From contig NZ_JADFFK010000014.1 of NCBI RefSeq assembly GCF_015223355.1, positions 62,001-126,000 of the forward strand: DNA of 64,000 nt, written 5' to 3'. Origin of the DNA: Salipiger mangrovisoli (GTDB lineage Bacteria > Pseudomonadota > Alphaproteobacteria > Rhodobacterales > Rhodobacteraceae). The translations under genes and the position numbers were made by a program. Positions 8,431 to 15,697 of the stretch are shown here, one piece after another (positions within the stretch are counted from its first letter, which is position 1; each line of letters begins with the position of its first letter). The notes under the pieces are model-generated. The model did not search any database, was not told the origin of the DNA, and worked only from the letters and a program-made list of their open reading frames with translations.

Positions 8431-10146
8431 ATGTCTCAGGGCGAAAAACTCGAAGTCCGGTCGGGTCCGGCGCAGGATGCAAATGCGCCCTGGTCCGAGG
8501 TGCCCGGGCTGATCGATGCACCGGGTGGCAGTGTGAACATCGCCTACGAGGCGGTGGATCGCCACGTCCGTCATGGGCACGGCGCGGACACCGCCCTGCT
8601 CTGGTTCGGAGCAGAGGGTGCGCGACGCGCGCTCTCCTTTGCCGAACTTGCGGAGCAGACGGCGCGGTTCGCGAACGTCCTGCGCGCGCATGGGCTGGAC
8701 CGCGGCGACAGCGTCTACGCCTTGATGGGCCGGGTGCCGGAGCTCTACGTCACCGCGCTCGGCACGCTGAAGGCGGGGCTGGTGTTCACGCCACTGTTTT
8801 CAGCCTTCGGTCCCGAGCCGATCCGCACACGCATGGAGATCGGTGGCGCAACGGTGCTGGTGACGACCTTGGCGCTCTACCGGCGCAAGATCGCGCCCTG
8901 GCGGGACCAGATGGCCTCGCTGCGGCTGGTGTTGATCCTCGGCGACGAGGCGCCCGATGGCTGTGTTGCGCTCGGCCCCGCACTGGCGGCGGCGATGCCC
9001 GCGTTCGAGCCGGTTCCGACGGGGCCCGAAGACCCGGCGCTGATCCACTTCACCTCGGGCACCACGGGCCGCCCCAAGGGCGCGGTCCACGTTCACGGCG
9101 CGGTGCTCTACCACGCCTTCTCTGGGTGCGTTGCGCTCGATCTGAAGCCCGGCACGATCTACTGGTGCACGGCGGATCCCGGCTGGGTCACCGGCACCTC
9201 CTACGGCATCATCGCACCCTTGGTGAACCGGGCGATGATGATCGTCGACGAGGCAGAGTTCGACCTGCAGCGCTGGTATGAAACCGTGCAGCGCGAGAAG
9301 GTCGAGGTCTGGTACACCGCCCCCACCGCGATCCGCATGATGATGCGCTCCGGCCAGCAGGTGGCGGCACCCTACGACTTTTCTTCGCTGCGCTTTCTGG
9401 CCAGCGTCGGTGAGCCGCTGAACCCCGAGGCGGTGATCTGGTCCGAGGCTGTCTTCGGTCAGCCCTTCCACGACAACTGGTGGCAGACCGAGACCGGCGG
9501 CATCATGATCGCCAACCGGCCGGGGATGACGGTGCGGCCCGGCTCCATGGGCACGCCGTTGCCGGGCATCGCGGCGGGCATCGTGCAGCGCGACGGTGAC
9601 AGGCTGCACGAGCTCGGCGACGGCGAGGTCGGCGAGCTGGCGCTGCGTCCCGGCTGGCCGTCGATGATGCGCGCCTACCTCGGCGAGCAGGCGCGCTATG
9701 ACAAGTGCTTCGCGGACGGCTGGTACCTCAGCGGCGATCTCGCGATGCGCGATGCCGACGGGTATTTCTGGTTCGTCGGCCGTGCCGACGACCTGATCAA
9801 GAGCTCCGGGCATCTGATCGGGCCCTTCGAGGTGGAAAGCGCACTGATCGAACACCCCGCCGTCGCCGAGGCCGGCGTTATCGGCGTTCCCGACGAGACG
9901 GCGGGCGAGGTGGTGAAGGCCTATGTGACGCTCAACCCCGGCTACTCGGCTTCGGAGGACCTGGAACGCGCGCTGCGCGGGCATGCCCGGCCGCGGCTCG
10001 GGCCGGCGGTGGCCCCGCGCGAGGTGATCTTCCGTACGACCCTGCCCAAGACGCGCTCGGGGAAGATCATGCGCCGGCTGCTCAAGGCGCGCGAGCTGGG
10101 CCTGCCCGAGGGCGATATTTCCACGCTGGAGACGGACGAGTCATGA
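8431..10146 (+). CDS. acs: acetyl-CoA synthetase-type AMP-forming ligase
   Basis: A 571-residue acyl-adenylate-forming ligase of the acetate-CoA ligase type. It has the ATP loop [10 protein letters not shown] (208-217), then [26 protein letters not shown] and a C-terminal domain with [18 protein letters not shown] and the catalytic lysine in [12 protein letters not shown]. It would interconvert acetate, ATP and CoA with acetyl-CoA. It is shorter than classical Acs (about 650) and closer in size to Bacillus AcsA. The start at 8431 has GGAGG 5 bases upstream; an earlier in-frame ATG (8398) lacks one. Its stop overlaps the next start (ATGA). As first gene of an operon with PDH subunits and a hydrogenase it may work on acetate or acetyl-CoA under low oxygen. 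Confidence 0.88.
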
Positions 10147-13624: not shown

Positions 13625-15697
13625 ATGATCACGGTTCGGGTGAACGGACGGCGCGTCACGGTCGAGGAGGGCGCGACCCTGCTCGACGCGGCGCGGGCGG
13701 CGGGGGTGCACATCCCGACGCTGTGTCATCACCCCGGCCTGCCCGCCCATGCCGCCTGCCGCATGTGCCTTGTCGAGGTCTCGGGCGCGCACGACCCGCA
13801 ACCGGCCTGCCGCACCCAAGCCAGGGACGGCACCCGGATCGAAACCGACACCGACGCCCTGCAGGCCTTTCGGCGGGCGGACGCGCAATGGCTGCTCGCG
13901 CGCCATCCGAACGATTGCATGCGCTGCGAACTCGATGGCGCCTGCCAGCTCCAGACCCTCGTGCGGGAAAACCAGTGGGAGGATCTCTGGCCGAAGCTTC
14001 CCGCCGGTCCGGTTGGCACGGCCGATGTGCTTTTGGATGACCATACGTCGCCGAGCATCTGGCGAGACCTGTCGAAATGCATCGAATGCGGGCTCTGTGC
14101 GGATGTCTGCGGCGAGTCCGTGCAGGAGCAGTTCATCATCGGCTTTGCCGGTCGGGGGTTCGACCGCCGGCCCGTCACCGTCTTCGACGCGCCCCTTGGA
14201 GAGACGAAGTGCATCTCCTGCGGCCAGTGCACGCTTGTCTGCCCGGTCGCTGCGCTGATCGAGACCCCGCACTGGCACGAGGTGCTGCAGACGCTCGACG
14301 CGCATCGCCGCGTCTCCGTGGTGCAGGTCGCCCCGGCGACGCGGGTCGCCATCAGCGAGGAGTTCGGCCTGACGCCGGGCACAGTGAGCACCGGACGCCT
14401 GATCAACGCGTTGCGGCAGCTCGGGTTCGACTACGTCTTCGACACCAACTTCGCCGCCGACCTGACGATCATGGAGGAAGGCTCCGAGCTTCTGTCGCGA
14501 CTGGAGGCCGGGACGGGGCTGCCGCTGTTCACCTCCTGCTGCCCCGGCTGGGTCAATTGGGTCGAGCTCAACCGTCCCGATCTCCTGCCCCATCTGAGCA
14601 CGACCAAATCGCCGCAGCAGATGCACGGCGTGATTGCCAAGCGCAGCGGCTTCGTGCGGTCCCTCGGTGCCGATTTCGCCGCGGGTCGGGCGGAACCTTA
14701 TGTCGTCAGCGTGATGCCCTGCACCGCCAAGAAGGACGAGGCCCGCCGCCCCGGCCAGTCGGGCGACGTGGACCACGTGCTCACGACACGGGAACTGGCC
14801 CGGATGATCCGCTCGCGGGGTATTCCCTTCGCCGCGCTCCCCGACGACGGGCAGTTCGACAGCCCGCTGGGAGAGAGCACCGGCGCGGCGCAGACCTTCG
14901 GCGCCTCCGGGGGCGTCATGGAAGCCATGGTGCGCACCGTCGCGCATCTCAAGGGCGCGGACCATGACCTTCCCTTGGAGTGGGAGGCGCTGCGCGGGGT
15001 CGGGCGGGGCATCAAGACCGCGACCATACCCGGTGTCGGCACGGTCGCGGTGTGCAACGGCATCGCCACGGCTCAACGCATGCTCGAGGGAGAGGGCTGG
15101 CGGCGCGATTACGTCGCCGTCGAGGTCATGGCCTGCGTCGGGGGCTGCCTCGGCGGCGGCGGTGAGCCAAAGTCGATGGACCCGCAAATACTCCGCAAAC
15201 GCGCTGCGGCCATCTATGCCATCGATGCGAACGCACCGCGCCGCAGGTCCTACGAGAACGGGGATGTCCAGGCGCTCTATGCATCGGAGCTTCAGTCACC
15301 GAATTCCCCGGCGGCGCATCTTTTGCTTCACACCCACTATGCCGCGCGACACTCGCGACGAGCGCTTCTGATGCGGTTCCTTGACTGTGTCGACCGCCGG
15401 GACGGGGCGGCGGCCGCGCAGCTTTTCCACCCGGAAGCGGTCTGGTCGACCGCCTCGGCCTACGGCGAGATCAAAGGCGCGGACCAGATCGGGTCGTTCA
15501 TCAGCCGCACGTTGCCGCCAAGAAGATATGGCTCGGAGTTTGTACGGCATCGGATGGAGACCGCCGCAAGCGTCGACGATCTCACGGTTCTCGCCCCGGA
15601 CGGCAGCCGCAGCAGGTTCCATTTGGACCTTCAGACCATCGAGCGCGACGGGGGTCCGAGAACGGTCATCTTAAGGCTCGCACGCGCAACCCTCTGA
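13625..15697 (+). CDS. [FeFe]-hydrogenase with SnoaL-like C-terminal domain
   Basis: A 690-residue M3-type iron hydrogenase. The order is: a 2Fe-2S ferredoxin domain (C34, C45, C48, C62), a His-ligated 4Fe-4S site (H94, C98, C101, C107), two 4Fe-4S motifs (C152/155/158/162 and C196/199/202/206), and the H-cluster domain with all three signatures: TSCCPGW (C305 proton relay, C306 ligand), MPCTAKKDE (C366) and MACVGGCLGGGGEP (C504, C508). The small-subunit motif is fused (RSYENGDVQALY, LLHTHYAARH, about 525-576). An extra domain (about 578-690) looks like SnoaL/NTF2. Every catalytic ligand is present, so it should be active if matured. HydE, HydF and HydG are not in the window. The ribosome site is GGAGG, 9 bases upstream. 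Confidence 0.93.
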   Translation: MITVRVNGRRVTVEEGATLLDAARAAGVHIPTLCHHPGLPAHAACRMCLVEVSGAHDPQPACRTQARDGTRIETDTDALQAFRRADAQWLLARHPNDCMRCELDGACQLQTLVRENQWEDLWPKLPAGPVGTADVLLDDHTSPSIWRDLSKCIECGLCADVCGESVQEQFIIGFAGRGFDRRPVTVFDAPLGETKCISCGQCTLVCPVAALIETPHWHEVLQTLDAHRRVSVVQVAPATRVAISEEFGLTPGTVSTGRLINALRQLGFDYVFDTNFAADLTIMEEGSELLSRLEAGTGLPLFTSCCPGWVNWVELNRPDLLPHLSTTKSPQQMHGVIAKRSGFVRSLGADFAAGRAEPYVVSVMPCTAKKDEARRPGQSGDVDHVLTTRELARMIRSRGIPFAALPDDGQFDSPLGESTGAAQTFGASGGVMEAMVRTVAHLKGADHDLPLEWEALRGVGRGIKTATIPGVGTVAVCNGIATAQRMLEGEGWRRDYVAVEVMACVGGCLGGGGEPKSMDPQILRKRAAAIYAIDANAPRRRSYENGDVQALYASELQSPNSPAAHLLLHTHYAARHSRRALLMRFLDCVDRRDGAAAAQLFHPEAVWSTASAYGEIKGADQIGSFISRTLPPRRYGSEFVRHRMETAASVDDLTVLAPDGSRSRFHLDLQTIERDGGPRTVILRLARATL

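What the first reader, a model, noticed from the sequence alone, without database searches (positions are those of the whole stretch)
8431..15697. Complete [FeFe]-hydrogenase at the end of an acetyl-CoA synthetase/PDH/ACP operon in an alphaproteobacterium
Five genes are packed with ATGA overlaps or tiny gaps: acs, fused E1, E2, ACP and an M3-type [FeFe]-hydrogenase with every FeS and H-cluster ligand present (C305/C306, C366, C504, C508). Such hydrogenases are mostly known from anaerobes, and I know of no standard operon pairing one with a thiamine E1/E2 dehydrogenase, an ACP and an ATP-linked acetyl-CoA enzyme. Inference: a low-oxygen module that decarboxylates a 2-oxoacid, vents electrons as H2 or reuses H2, and conserves energy via acetyl-CoA. 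No E3 and no HydEFG maturases are in the window, so either they are elsewhere or the electron path is unusual.
Basis: partly seen in the sequence, partly recalled or inferred. Interest (0 to 1): 0.88.

Follow-up and report, generated by a model that had tools for sequence, protein, structure and literature searches.

The report
[FeFe]-hydrogenase clade without its maturases
A hydrogen-enzyme look-alike sits at the end of a low-oxygen acetyl-CoA operon; it keeps the residues of the hydrogen-making site, yet the proteins known to build that site were not found in this genome or in its relatives, so it either works differently or is built in an unknown way.

Summary
The H2-venting reading is weakened. 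HydG and HydE were not found in the own genome; HydF models hit only generic GTPases. The protein belongs to a well-supported clade with 32 further loci in alpha-, beta- and gammaproteobacteria plus G183, carrying an extra C-terminal SnoaL/NTF2-like domain. HydG: 0 of 33 genomes; HydE over cut-off: 0 of 33; HydF dimer domain: 0 of 27. Yet ligands, diiron pocket and proton path are conserved (34 of 34; one position 33). The acs-PDH-ACP cassette has an Fnr/FixK-type box and mostly occurs without the hydrogenase, but all 10 hydrogenase-bearing Rhodobacteraceae-type genomes carry its fused E1. Either the clade does other chemistry, or it is matured by an unknown route. H2-uptake tests on probable members were negative (PMC4744846, passages).

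The parts
8352..8365 (+). Fnr/FixK-type box TTGATGCACGTCAA, 65 bp before the acs ATG
   Evidence: 5 sites in window, 0.15 expected
8431..10146 (+). acs, acetate-CoA ligase (PRK04319 type), 571 aa
10143..12152 (+). fused pyruvate dehydrogenase E1 alpha-beta, 669 aa
12169..13336 (+). E2 (lipoyl, E3-binding, 2-oxoacid_dh); frame broken at a G run near 12555; intact in relatives
13333..13590 (+). acyl carrier protein, 85 aa
13625..15697 (+). M3-type [FeFe]-hydrogenase homologue, 690 aa, of the maturase-less clade
15350..15694 (+). C-terminal SnoaL/NTF2-like extension of the same protein (residues 576-690)
   Evidence: weak Pfam matches
24939..25799 (-). Crp/Fnr regulator with N-terminal Cys motif (C15, C18, C26, C28): candidate O2 sensor acting on the box (inferred)

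Best explanation
The gene encodes a member of a distinct, long-maintained clade of M3-type HydA homologues in Proteobacteria whose genomes lack HydEFG. Shown: clade membership, domain make-up, invariance of ligands and pocket, no HydE/HydG found and no HydF dimer domain where searched, a low-oxygen-type box before the operon. Inferred mechanism: at low oxygen an Fnr-type regulator switches on acs-PDH-ACP-hyd; the cassette keeps acetyl-CoA flowing (PHB synthase and depolymerase lie in the same island); the HydA-like protein receives its [2Fe-2S] and [4Fe-4S] clusters, [4Fe-4S]H included, from the housekeeping Fe-S machinery, carries no HydEFG-made diiron site, and works as a soluble redox protein on a substrate other than H2 or as a redox/ligand sensor, with the NTF2-like domain as ligand-binding or partner domain. 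It is not an ordinary H2-evolving hydrogenase.
For: HydG: none in G000, in G183 or in 31 of 31 further family genomes. HydE: none in G000, none over cut-off in 32 (9 of the 32 have weak matches of at most 42.9 bits, cut-off 254.6). HydF dimer domain: 0 of 27 family genomes, 3 of 3 controls (G000 was not in that call). The same HydG model is over cut-off in 6 of 10 other alphaproteobacterial genomes that have a 40-46% identical hydrogenase. Clade: 33 rows on one branch, 100/100, stem 1.48 changes per column. Extra C-terminal stretch in the 31 complete named relatives by length, aligned in 28. E514 in 34 of 34, where 13 of 13 outgroup rows and the three solved sequences shown have Q. No recurrent HydB/HydC-type neighbour seen, whereas three group A6 genes looked up have a NuoF-like neighbour (3 of 3) and a NuoE-like one (2 of 3). 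PMC4744846 (passages): Thiomicrospira chilensis, kuenenii and pelophila, whose putative group A1 proteins are nearest (70%) to Roseibacterium elongatum's, did not consume H2.
Against: Residues that in CpI serve diiron site and proton path (roles recalled; mapping) are kept: C305, C306, C366, C504, C508, K369, M364, M502, E285, E288, R292 in 34 of 34, S325 in 33 of 34. The H-domain is under strong purifying selection (dN/dS 0.07 versus L060, 0.15 versus L032). Such conservation is what a real H-cluster would need. That the Thiomicrospira proteins belong here is inferred from identity only. HydG is missing also in 4 of 10 alphaproteobacterial control genomes with a short-form hydrogenase, so its absence alone is not peculiar to the clade. 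No structure was obtained.
Confidence: 0.5

Rival explanations
1. It is a true [FeFe]-hydrogenase whose diiron cofactor is built by a route without HydE, HydF and HydG, active at low oxygen; the NTF2-like domain helps insertion or protects against oxygen.
For: Ligands, pocket and proton path conserved in 34 of 34 sequences (S325 33 of 34) across three proteobacterial groups; purifying selection; low-oxygen-type box before the operon.
Against: No alternative maturation route is known to me; no neighbour gene shared by more than 7 of 34 loci; negative H2 uptake in probable members (PMC4744846 passages).
Confidence: 0.25
2. An ordinary HydEFG-matured hydrogenase; the maturases were missed because of draft genomes or divergence.
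For: Most genomes are drafts and 20 of the 31 are not plain isolates by record title; completeness is told only for G000 and G183 (both 100%).
Against: HydG and HydE models fail in 33 of 33 genomes and the HydF dimer domain in 27 of 27, 11 of the 31 named ones being isolates by title. The HydG model rings in 7 and the HydE model in 12 of 14 control genomes, mostly on far relatives, and HydG and HydF ring on true maturases.
Confidence: 0.04
3. A relic: a decaying hydrogenase gene carried along after loss of the maturases.
For: The window's E2 gene is broken; Aquabacterium has a partial second copy (L064).
Against: 31 of the 32 named relatives read as uninterrupted frames of 687-702 residues, the other (L058) runs off its contig; dN/dS 0.18-0.19 over the gene; the clade spans alpha-, beta- and gammaproteobacteria.
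Confidence: 0.04
4. The apo-protein takes up the diiron cofactor or a precursor made by neighbouring anaerobes.
For: The pocket is kept although no maturase was found.
Against: No natural import of the cofactor is known to me; members include isolates grown alone (titles).
Confidence: 0.05
5. The hydrogenase homologue and the acs-PDH-ACP cassette share only control and island, not a pathway (compatible with any of the above).
Against: 10 of 10 Rhodobacteraceae-type hydrogenase genomes have the fused E1 against 12% background (own left out 9 of 9 against 36 of 294, p 1.7e-8; by genus 5 of 5, p 4e-5; rows are related, and that all ten lie in the sampled family is assumed).
Confidence: 0.4

Closest known systems
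Group A6 / HydA1 subunits of NAD-linked bifurcating [FeFe]-hydrogenases (NF040763; PDB 8a6t, 7q4v)
   Same: Full M3 F-domain, H-domain and SSU; best NCBIfam (635.7 bits) and PDB (480 bits) matches
   Different: Below the A6 cut-off of 765 bits; no HydB/HydC partner seen alongside, no maturases found, extra C-terminal domain, E514 instead of Q
Clostridium pasteurianum CpI
   Same: H-cluster ligands and proton-path residues align
   Different: CpI's host has HydEFG (recalled); CpI lacks the C-terminal SnoaL/NTF2-like domain (alignment ends at residue 573 of the query)
Putative group A1 [FeFe] proteins of Thiomicrospira, Hydrogenovibrio, Roseibacterium and Wenzhouxiangella (PMC4744846, passages)
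   Same: Mutual identity (68-70%) in the range inside this clade; probably members
   Different: Reported only as putative, with no H2 uptake; the passages seen do not mention missing HydEFG or the extra domain; membership not tested here
Rhodospirillum rubrum [FeFe] protein without maturases (PMC4967309, passages)
   Different: Whether it has the extra domain or falls in this clade was not tested
Nar1/NARF proteins
   Same: HydA fold used without a diiron site (recalled)
   Different: Here the diiron pocket is conserved
Sensory HydS with C-terminal PAS domain (PMC6984386, passages)
   Same: HydA plus a C-terminal small domain
   Different: Another domain; maturation status not looked at here

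Membership tests
[FeFe]-hydrogenase, group A (M3) | H-domain motifs with the [4Fe-4S]H cysteines and the proton-path cysteine | tested here: met
   C305/C306/C366/C504/C508 in 34 of 34
[FeFe]-hydrogenase, group A (M3) | F-domain with one [2Fe-2S] and three [4Fe-4S] sites, and SSU domain | tested here: met
[FeFe]-hydrogenase, group A (M3) | Passes curated model TIGR02512 | tested here: met
   425.4 bits, cut-off 405.95
[FeFe]-hydrogenase, functional holoenzyme | HydE, HydF and HydG in the genome | tested here: not met
   own genome; relatives
[FeFe]-hydrogenase, functional holoenzyme | Diiron site bound; H2 turnover | not testable with these tools
   needs FTIR/EPR and activity; negative uptake in probable relatives (PMC4744846, passages)
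NADH-dependent group A6 / bifurcating HydABC | Curated cut-off of NF040763 | tested here: not met
   635.7 against 765
NADH-dependent group A6 / bifurcating HydABC | HydB (NuoF-like) and HydC (NuoE-like) next to HydA | tested here: not met
   window neighbours are others; in relatives none recurs; the Pfam tally covered 94 of 117 neighbours and shows 25 of 162 families
Pyruvate dehydrogenase complex | E1 alpha/beta and E2 with lipoyl, E3-binding and catalytic domains | tested here: met
   (E3-binding seen whole only in L060 and L148); the window's E2 is frame-broken; E3 not searched
Fnr/FixK regulon | TTGAY-N4-RTCAA palindrome upstream | tested here: met
   for acs; not enriched before the hydrogenase genes of the 32 relatives (2 of 32 against 12 of 384)

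The most novel reading that the evidence does not exclude
A branch of [FeFe]-hydrogenases in Proteobacteria is matured without HydE, HydF and HydG by an unknown pathway, or holds a different metal or organic cofactor in an otherwise intact H-cluster pocket.
Probability: 0.3. Interest if true: 0.92.

Novelty: new variant of a known kind. Interest (0 to 1): 0.62.

Why it matters
HydEFG is taken as the only route to the H-cluster (general knowledge). A clade that keeps the active site under selection in three proteobacterial groups, while HydG was found in none of the 33 genomes searched, is a direct test case: either the HydA scaffold does other chemistry with its pocket intact, or there is a second way to build the cofactor. 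Surveys that count hydrogenases by HydA alone may class such organisms as H2 metabolisers without ground.

Tried and rejected
Tried: (1) a conserved partner gene next to the hydrogenase. My gene calls on 34 loci (several cut short by contig ends) and clustering give no neighbour cluster in more than 7 loci; the clusters looked at are generic superfamilies (P-type ATPases, ABC ATPases, histidine kinases, response regulators, SDRs) at varying distance. Of 117 neighbours outside the window listed, 94 went into the Pfam tally; left out were cassette genes, near-copies (L061) and others, 23 in all. (2) An Fnr/FixK box before the hydrogenase genes of the 32 relatives: 2 of 32 perfect against 12 of 384 other genes of the same loci, not enriched. 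The 32 loci together hold 16 such boxes against 2.5 expected, 6 of them in one locus, L057. (3) Plasmid carriage: all 348 matching plasmid records are below 60% identity. (4) HydG or HydF by tblastn near the family genes and in the window: none (HydE not included). (5) Structure prediction: 17 attempts (15 with A3, 2 with A4), machine busy each time. The C-terminal fold therefore rests on weak Pfam matches (SnoaL_2 6e-6 in the window protein; a SnoaL match in 4 of the 5 members scanned, none in L056) and non-significant PDB matches to steroid isomerases (E 0.084 and worse). (6) Papers: searches listed no paper that I could see describing this clade's missing maturases or extra domain; most subscription papers are not held. 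PMC8924675, PMC6984386 and PMC2974642 were seen in passages only and do not treat it there.

The first outgroup comparison used the wrong strand for 6 of 13 outgroup rows; it was redone, and only (on the same alignment) are used for outgroup counts. Against my reading: S418, G308 and N478, fixed in the clade and different in most of the 13 outgroup rows, also occur in some of the solved hydrogenases, so of these only E514 (and T239) look clade-specific.
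Full report
What is there. Five genes run 8431-15697 on the + strand: acs (571 aa), a fused PDH E1 alpha-beta (669 aa), E2, ACP (85 aa) and a 690-aa [FeFe]-hydrogenase homologue 34 bp after ACP. The hydrogenase homologue has the complete M3 set: [2Fe-2S], His-ligated [4Fe-4S], two ferredoxin-type [4Fe-4S], H-domain, SSU domain and the H-cluster cysteines. Two things differ from the finding. 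E2 is split over two frames near 12555 in the window, while it was called as one open frame in the 20 other E1-bearing regions. And the hydrogenase carries about 115 extra C-terminal residues that match SnoaL-type (NTF2-like) domains weakly and are conserved in the relatives.

Maturases in the own genome. The genome (6.35 Mb, 100% complete, 95 contigs) has no HydG or HydE match at E 0.001. Its 9 HydF matches reach at most 71.4 bits against a cut-off of 325.55 and end by model position 183 of 392; I read them as generic GTPases.

The clade. Of 385 alphaproteobacterial genomes 19 have a hydrogenase match at E 1e-40, but only in G000 and G183 does the match run through the C-terminal domain (G183: 71% identity, another family). 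A scan of named genomes returned 71 loci: 32 are full or nearly full relatives at 66-91% identity, 1 is a partial second copy in Aquabacterium, and 38 match only the first 215 residues. The 32 come from Alloyangia, Thioclava, Tropicimonas, Jannaschia, Lutimaribacter, Hyphomonas, Phenylobacterium, Brevundimonas, Gallionella and kin, Nitrosomonas, Hydrogenophaga, Paraburkholderia, Aquabacterium, Oxalobacteraceae, Pleionea and other proteobacterial MAGs. That many of these are respiring organisms of oxic or micro-oxic places is my own knowledge. In 369 Gammaproteobacteria 3, the centre G409 included, have the long form and 4 more a shorter match; in 295 genomes of the own family only the own one has it. 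A tree of 33 members (L058, cut by its contig end, left out), 13 alphaproteobacterial and 5 anaerobe hydrogenases puts the clade on one branch with 100/100 support and a stem of 1.48; the 17 alphaproteobacterial members group together (99/99), and the ten Rhodobacteraceae-type rows form one group (100/99). The tool warns that long branches meet in this tree.

Maturases in the clade. HydG: 0 of 31 family genomes (L057's genome is not held), none in G183, none in G000. HydE: none over cut-off in 32; 9 of these have weak matches of up to 42.9 bits; none in G000. HydF dimer domain: 0 of the 27 family genomes given to that call (G000 not among them), while 3 of 3 maturase-bearing alphaproteobacterial controls ring. 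Controls for HydG: over cut-off in 6 of the 10 non-family alphaproteobacterial genomes given. In the other 4 (G201, G090, G038 without a match, G050 with weak ones) it was not found either, so orphan hydrogenases also occur outside this clade.

Selection on the active site. In 34 members and 13 outgroup proteins the cluster ligands checked are invariant; K369, M364, M502, E285, E288, R292 and C305 are invariant in both sets, and S325 is kept in 33 of 34 and 13 of 13. By alignment these correspond to the CpI diiron pocket and proton path (their roles are recalled). E514, six residues after C508, is fixed in the clade where 13 of 13 others and the three solved sequences shown have Q; T239 (33 of 34) stands where the 13 others have V. 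S418, G308 and N478 also differ from most of the 13 but are found in some solved hydrogenases. Nei-Gojobori dN/dS against Alloyangia DSM 26894 is 0.07 in the H-domain, 0.22 in the F-domain and 0.33 in the C-terminal domain; against strain KcN7-14 it is 0.15, 0.14 and 0.31. The gene looks functional, and its catalytic domain is among its most tightly held parts.

The cassette and its control. A fused E1 at 77% identity or more is in the 10 Rhodobacteraceae-type genomes with the hydrogenase and in none of the other 17 family genomes given to (27 of 33 were given). In the family sample the fused E1 is in 37 of 295 genomes, the own one included. With the own genome left out, 9 of 9 against 36 of 294 gives p 1.7e-8; by genus 5 of 5 gives p 4e-5. 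Related genomes are not independent, so the genus figure is the safer one; that all ten belong to the sampled family is assumed. I looked at 21 E1-bearing regions, 11 of them from the 36 genomes without hydrogenase: acs was called in 19 (L062 is cut off there), E2 in 20 besides the window's broken one, ACP in 20; L138 lacks acs and ACP. In 19 of 19 acs upstream regions the core TTGA-N6-TCAA is matched at 7 or 8 of 8 positions, 9 perfectly; 16 of 225 other genes in those loci have a perfect one (the control was not counted at 7 of 8). In the window the perfect box lies at 8352-8365. A Crp/Fnr protein with C15, C18, C26 and C28 is encoded at 24939-25799, amid PHB synthase, PHB depolymerase, Hsp20, Lon, Usp and CBS genes: I read this as a low-oxygen stress and storage island. 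Against a general low-oxygen role of the clade, the hydrogenase genes of the relatives show no enrichment of such boxes.

Reading. The cassette most likely keeps acetyl-CoA and pyruvate oxidation going under low oxygen, with PHB as a sink (inference). The hydrogenase homologue was drawn into this setting in the Alloyangia line. Because HydEFG was not found, I hold it about as likely as not that it carries no HydEFG-made diiron site and does something other than ordinary H2 turnover (0.5); because the pocket is conserved, a non-HydEFG maturation (0.25) or another ligand in the pocket stays a serious rival. The only activity data found, in passages of PMC4744846, are negative: three Thiomicrospira species with putative group A1 [FeFe] proteins, nearest at 70% identity to the protein of a Roseobacter-group bacterium, consumed no H2 under the conditions tested. 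PMC4967309 (passages) reports that alphaproteobacterial hydrogenases without maturases, as in R. rubrum, were thought inactive or of a different role. So single cases are known; that a whole clade shares the lack together with an added domain and a kept active site I did not find in print.

Limits. No structure could be predicted. Among the family genomes completeness is told only for G000 and G183. The C-terminal fold is a weak assignment. E3 was not searched for. Neighbourhoods rest on my own simple gene caller.

Noticed in passing
window 12540-12570: E2 gene split over two frames at a G run; called intact in the 20 other E1-bearing regions. Sequencing error or real loss cannot be told apart.
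   Followed up: partly
window 1035, 8352, 26683, 30613, 30714: Five perfect Fnr/FixK-type boxes in 64 kb against 0.15 expected; the window looks like a low-oxygen regulon island with Usp, CBS, P-type ATPase, Hsp20, Lon, PhaC and PHB depolymerase genes.
   Followed up: partly
window 15935-18676: One protein joins a phosphoribosyltransferase domain, an alpha/beta hydrolase and an erythromycin-esterase domain; stretches matching parts of it lie near the hydrogenase gene in L050, L054 and L057.
   Followed up: no
L064 10001-11362: Aquabacterium sp. CECT 9606 carries a partial second copy of the hydrogenase gene on the same contig as the complete one (L054).
   Followed up: no
L012, L013, L018 (G201, G090, G038): Small, 98-100% complete alphaproteobacterial genomes with a 44-45% identical M3 hydrogenase of the short form gave no HydG match either.
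   Followed up: no
L156: A Cetobacterium plasmid [FeFe] hydrogenase gene lies directly after fdhF, a formate dehydrogenase gene.
   Followed up: no
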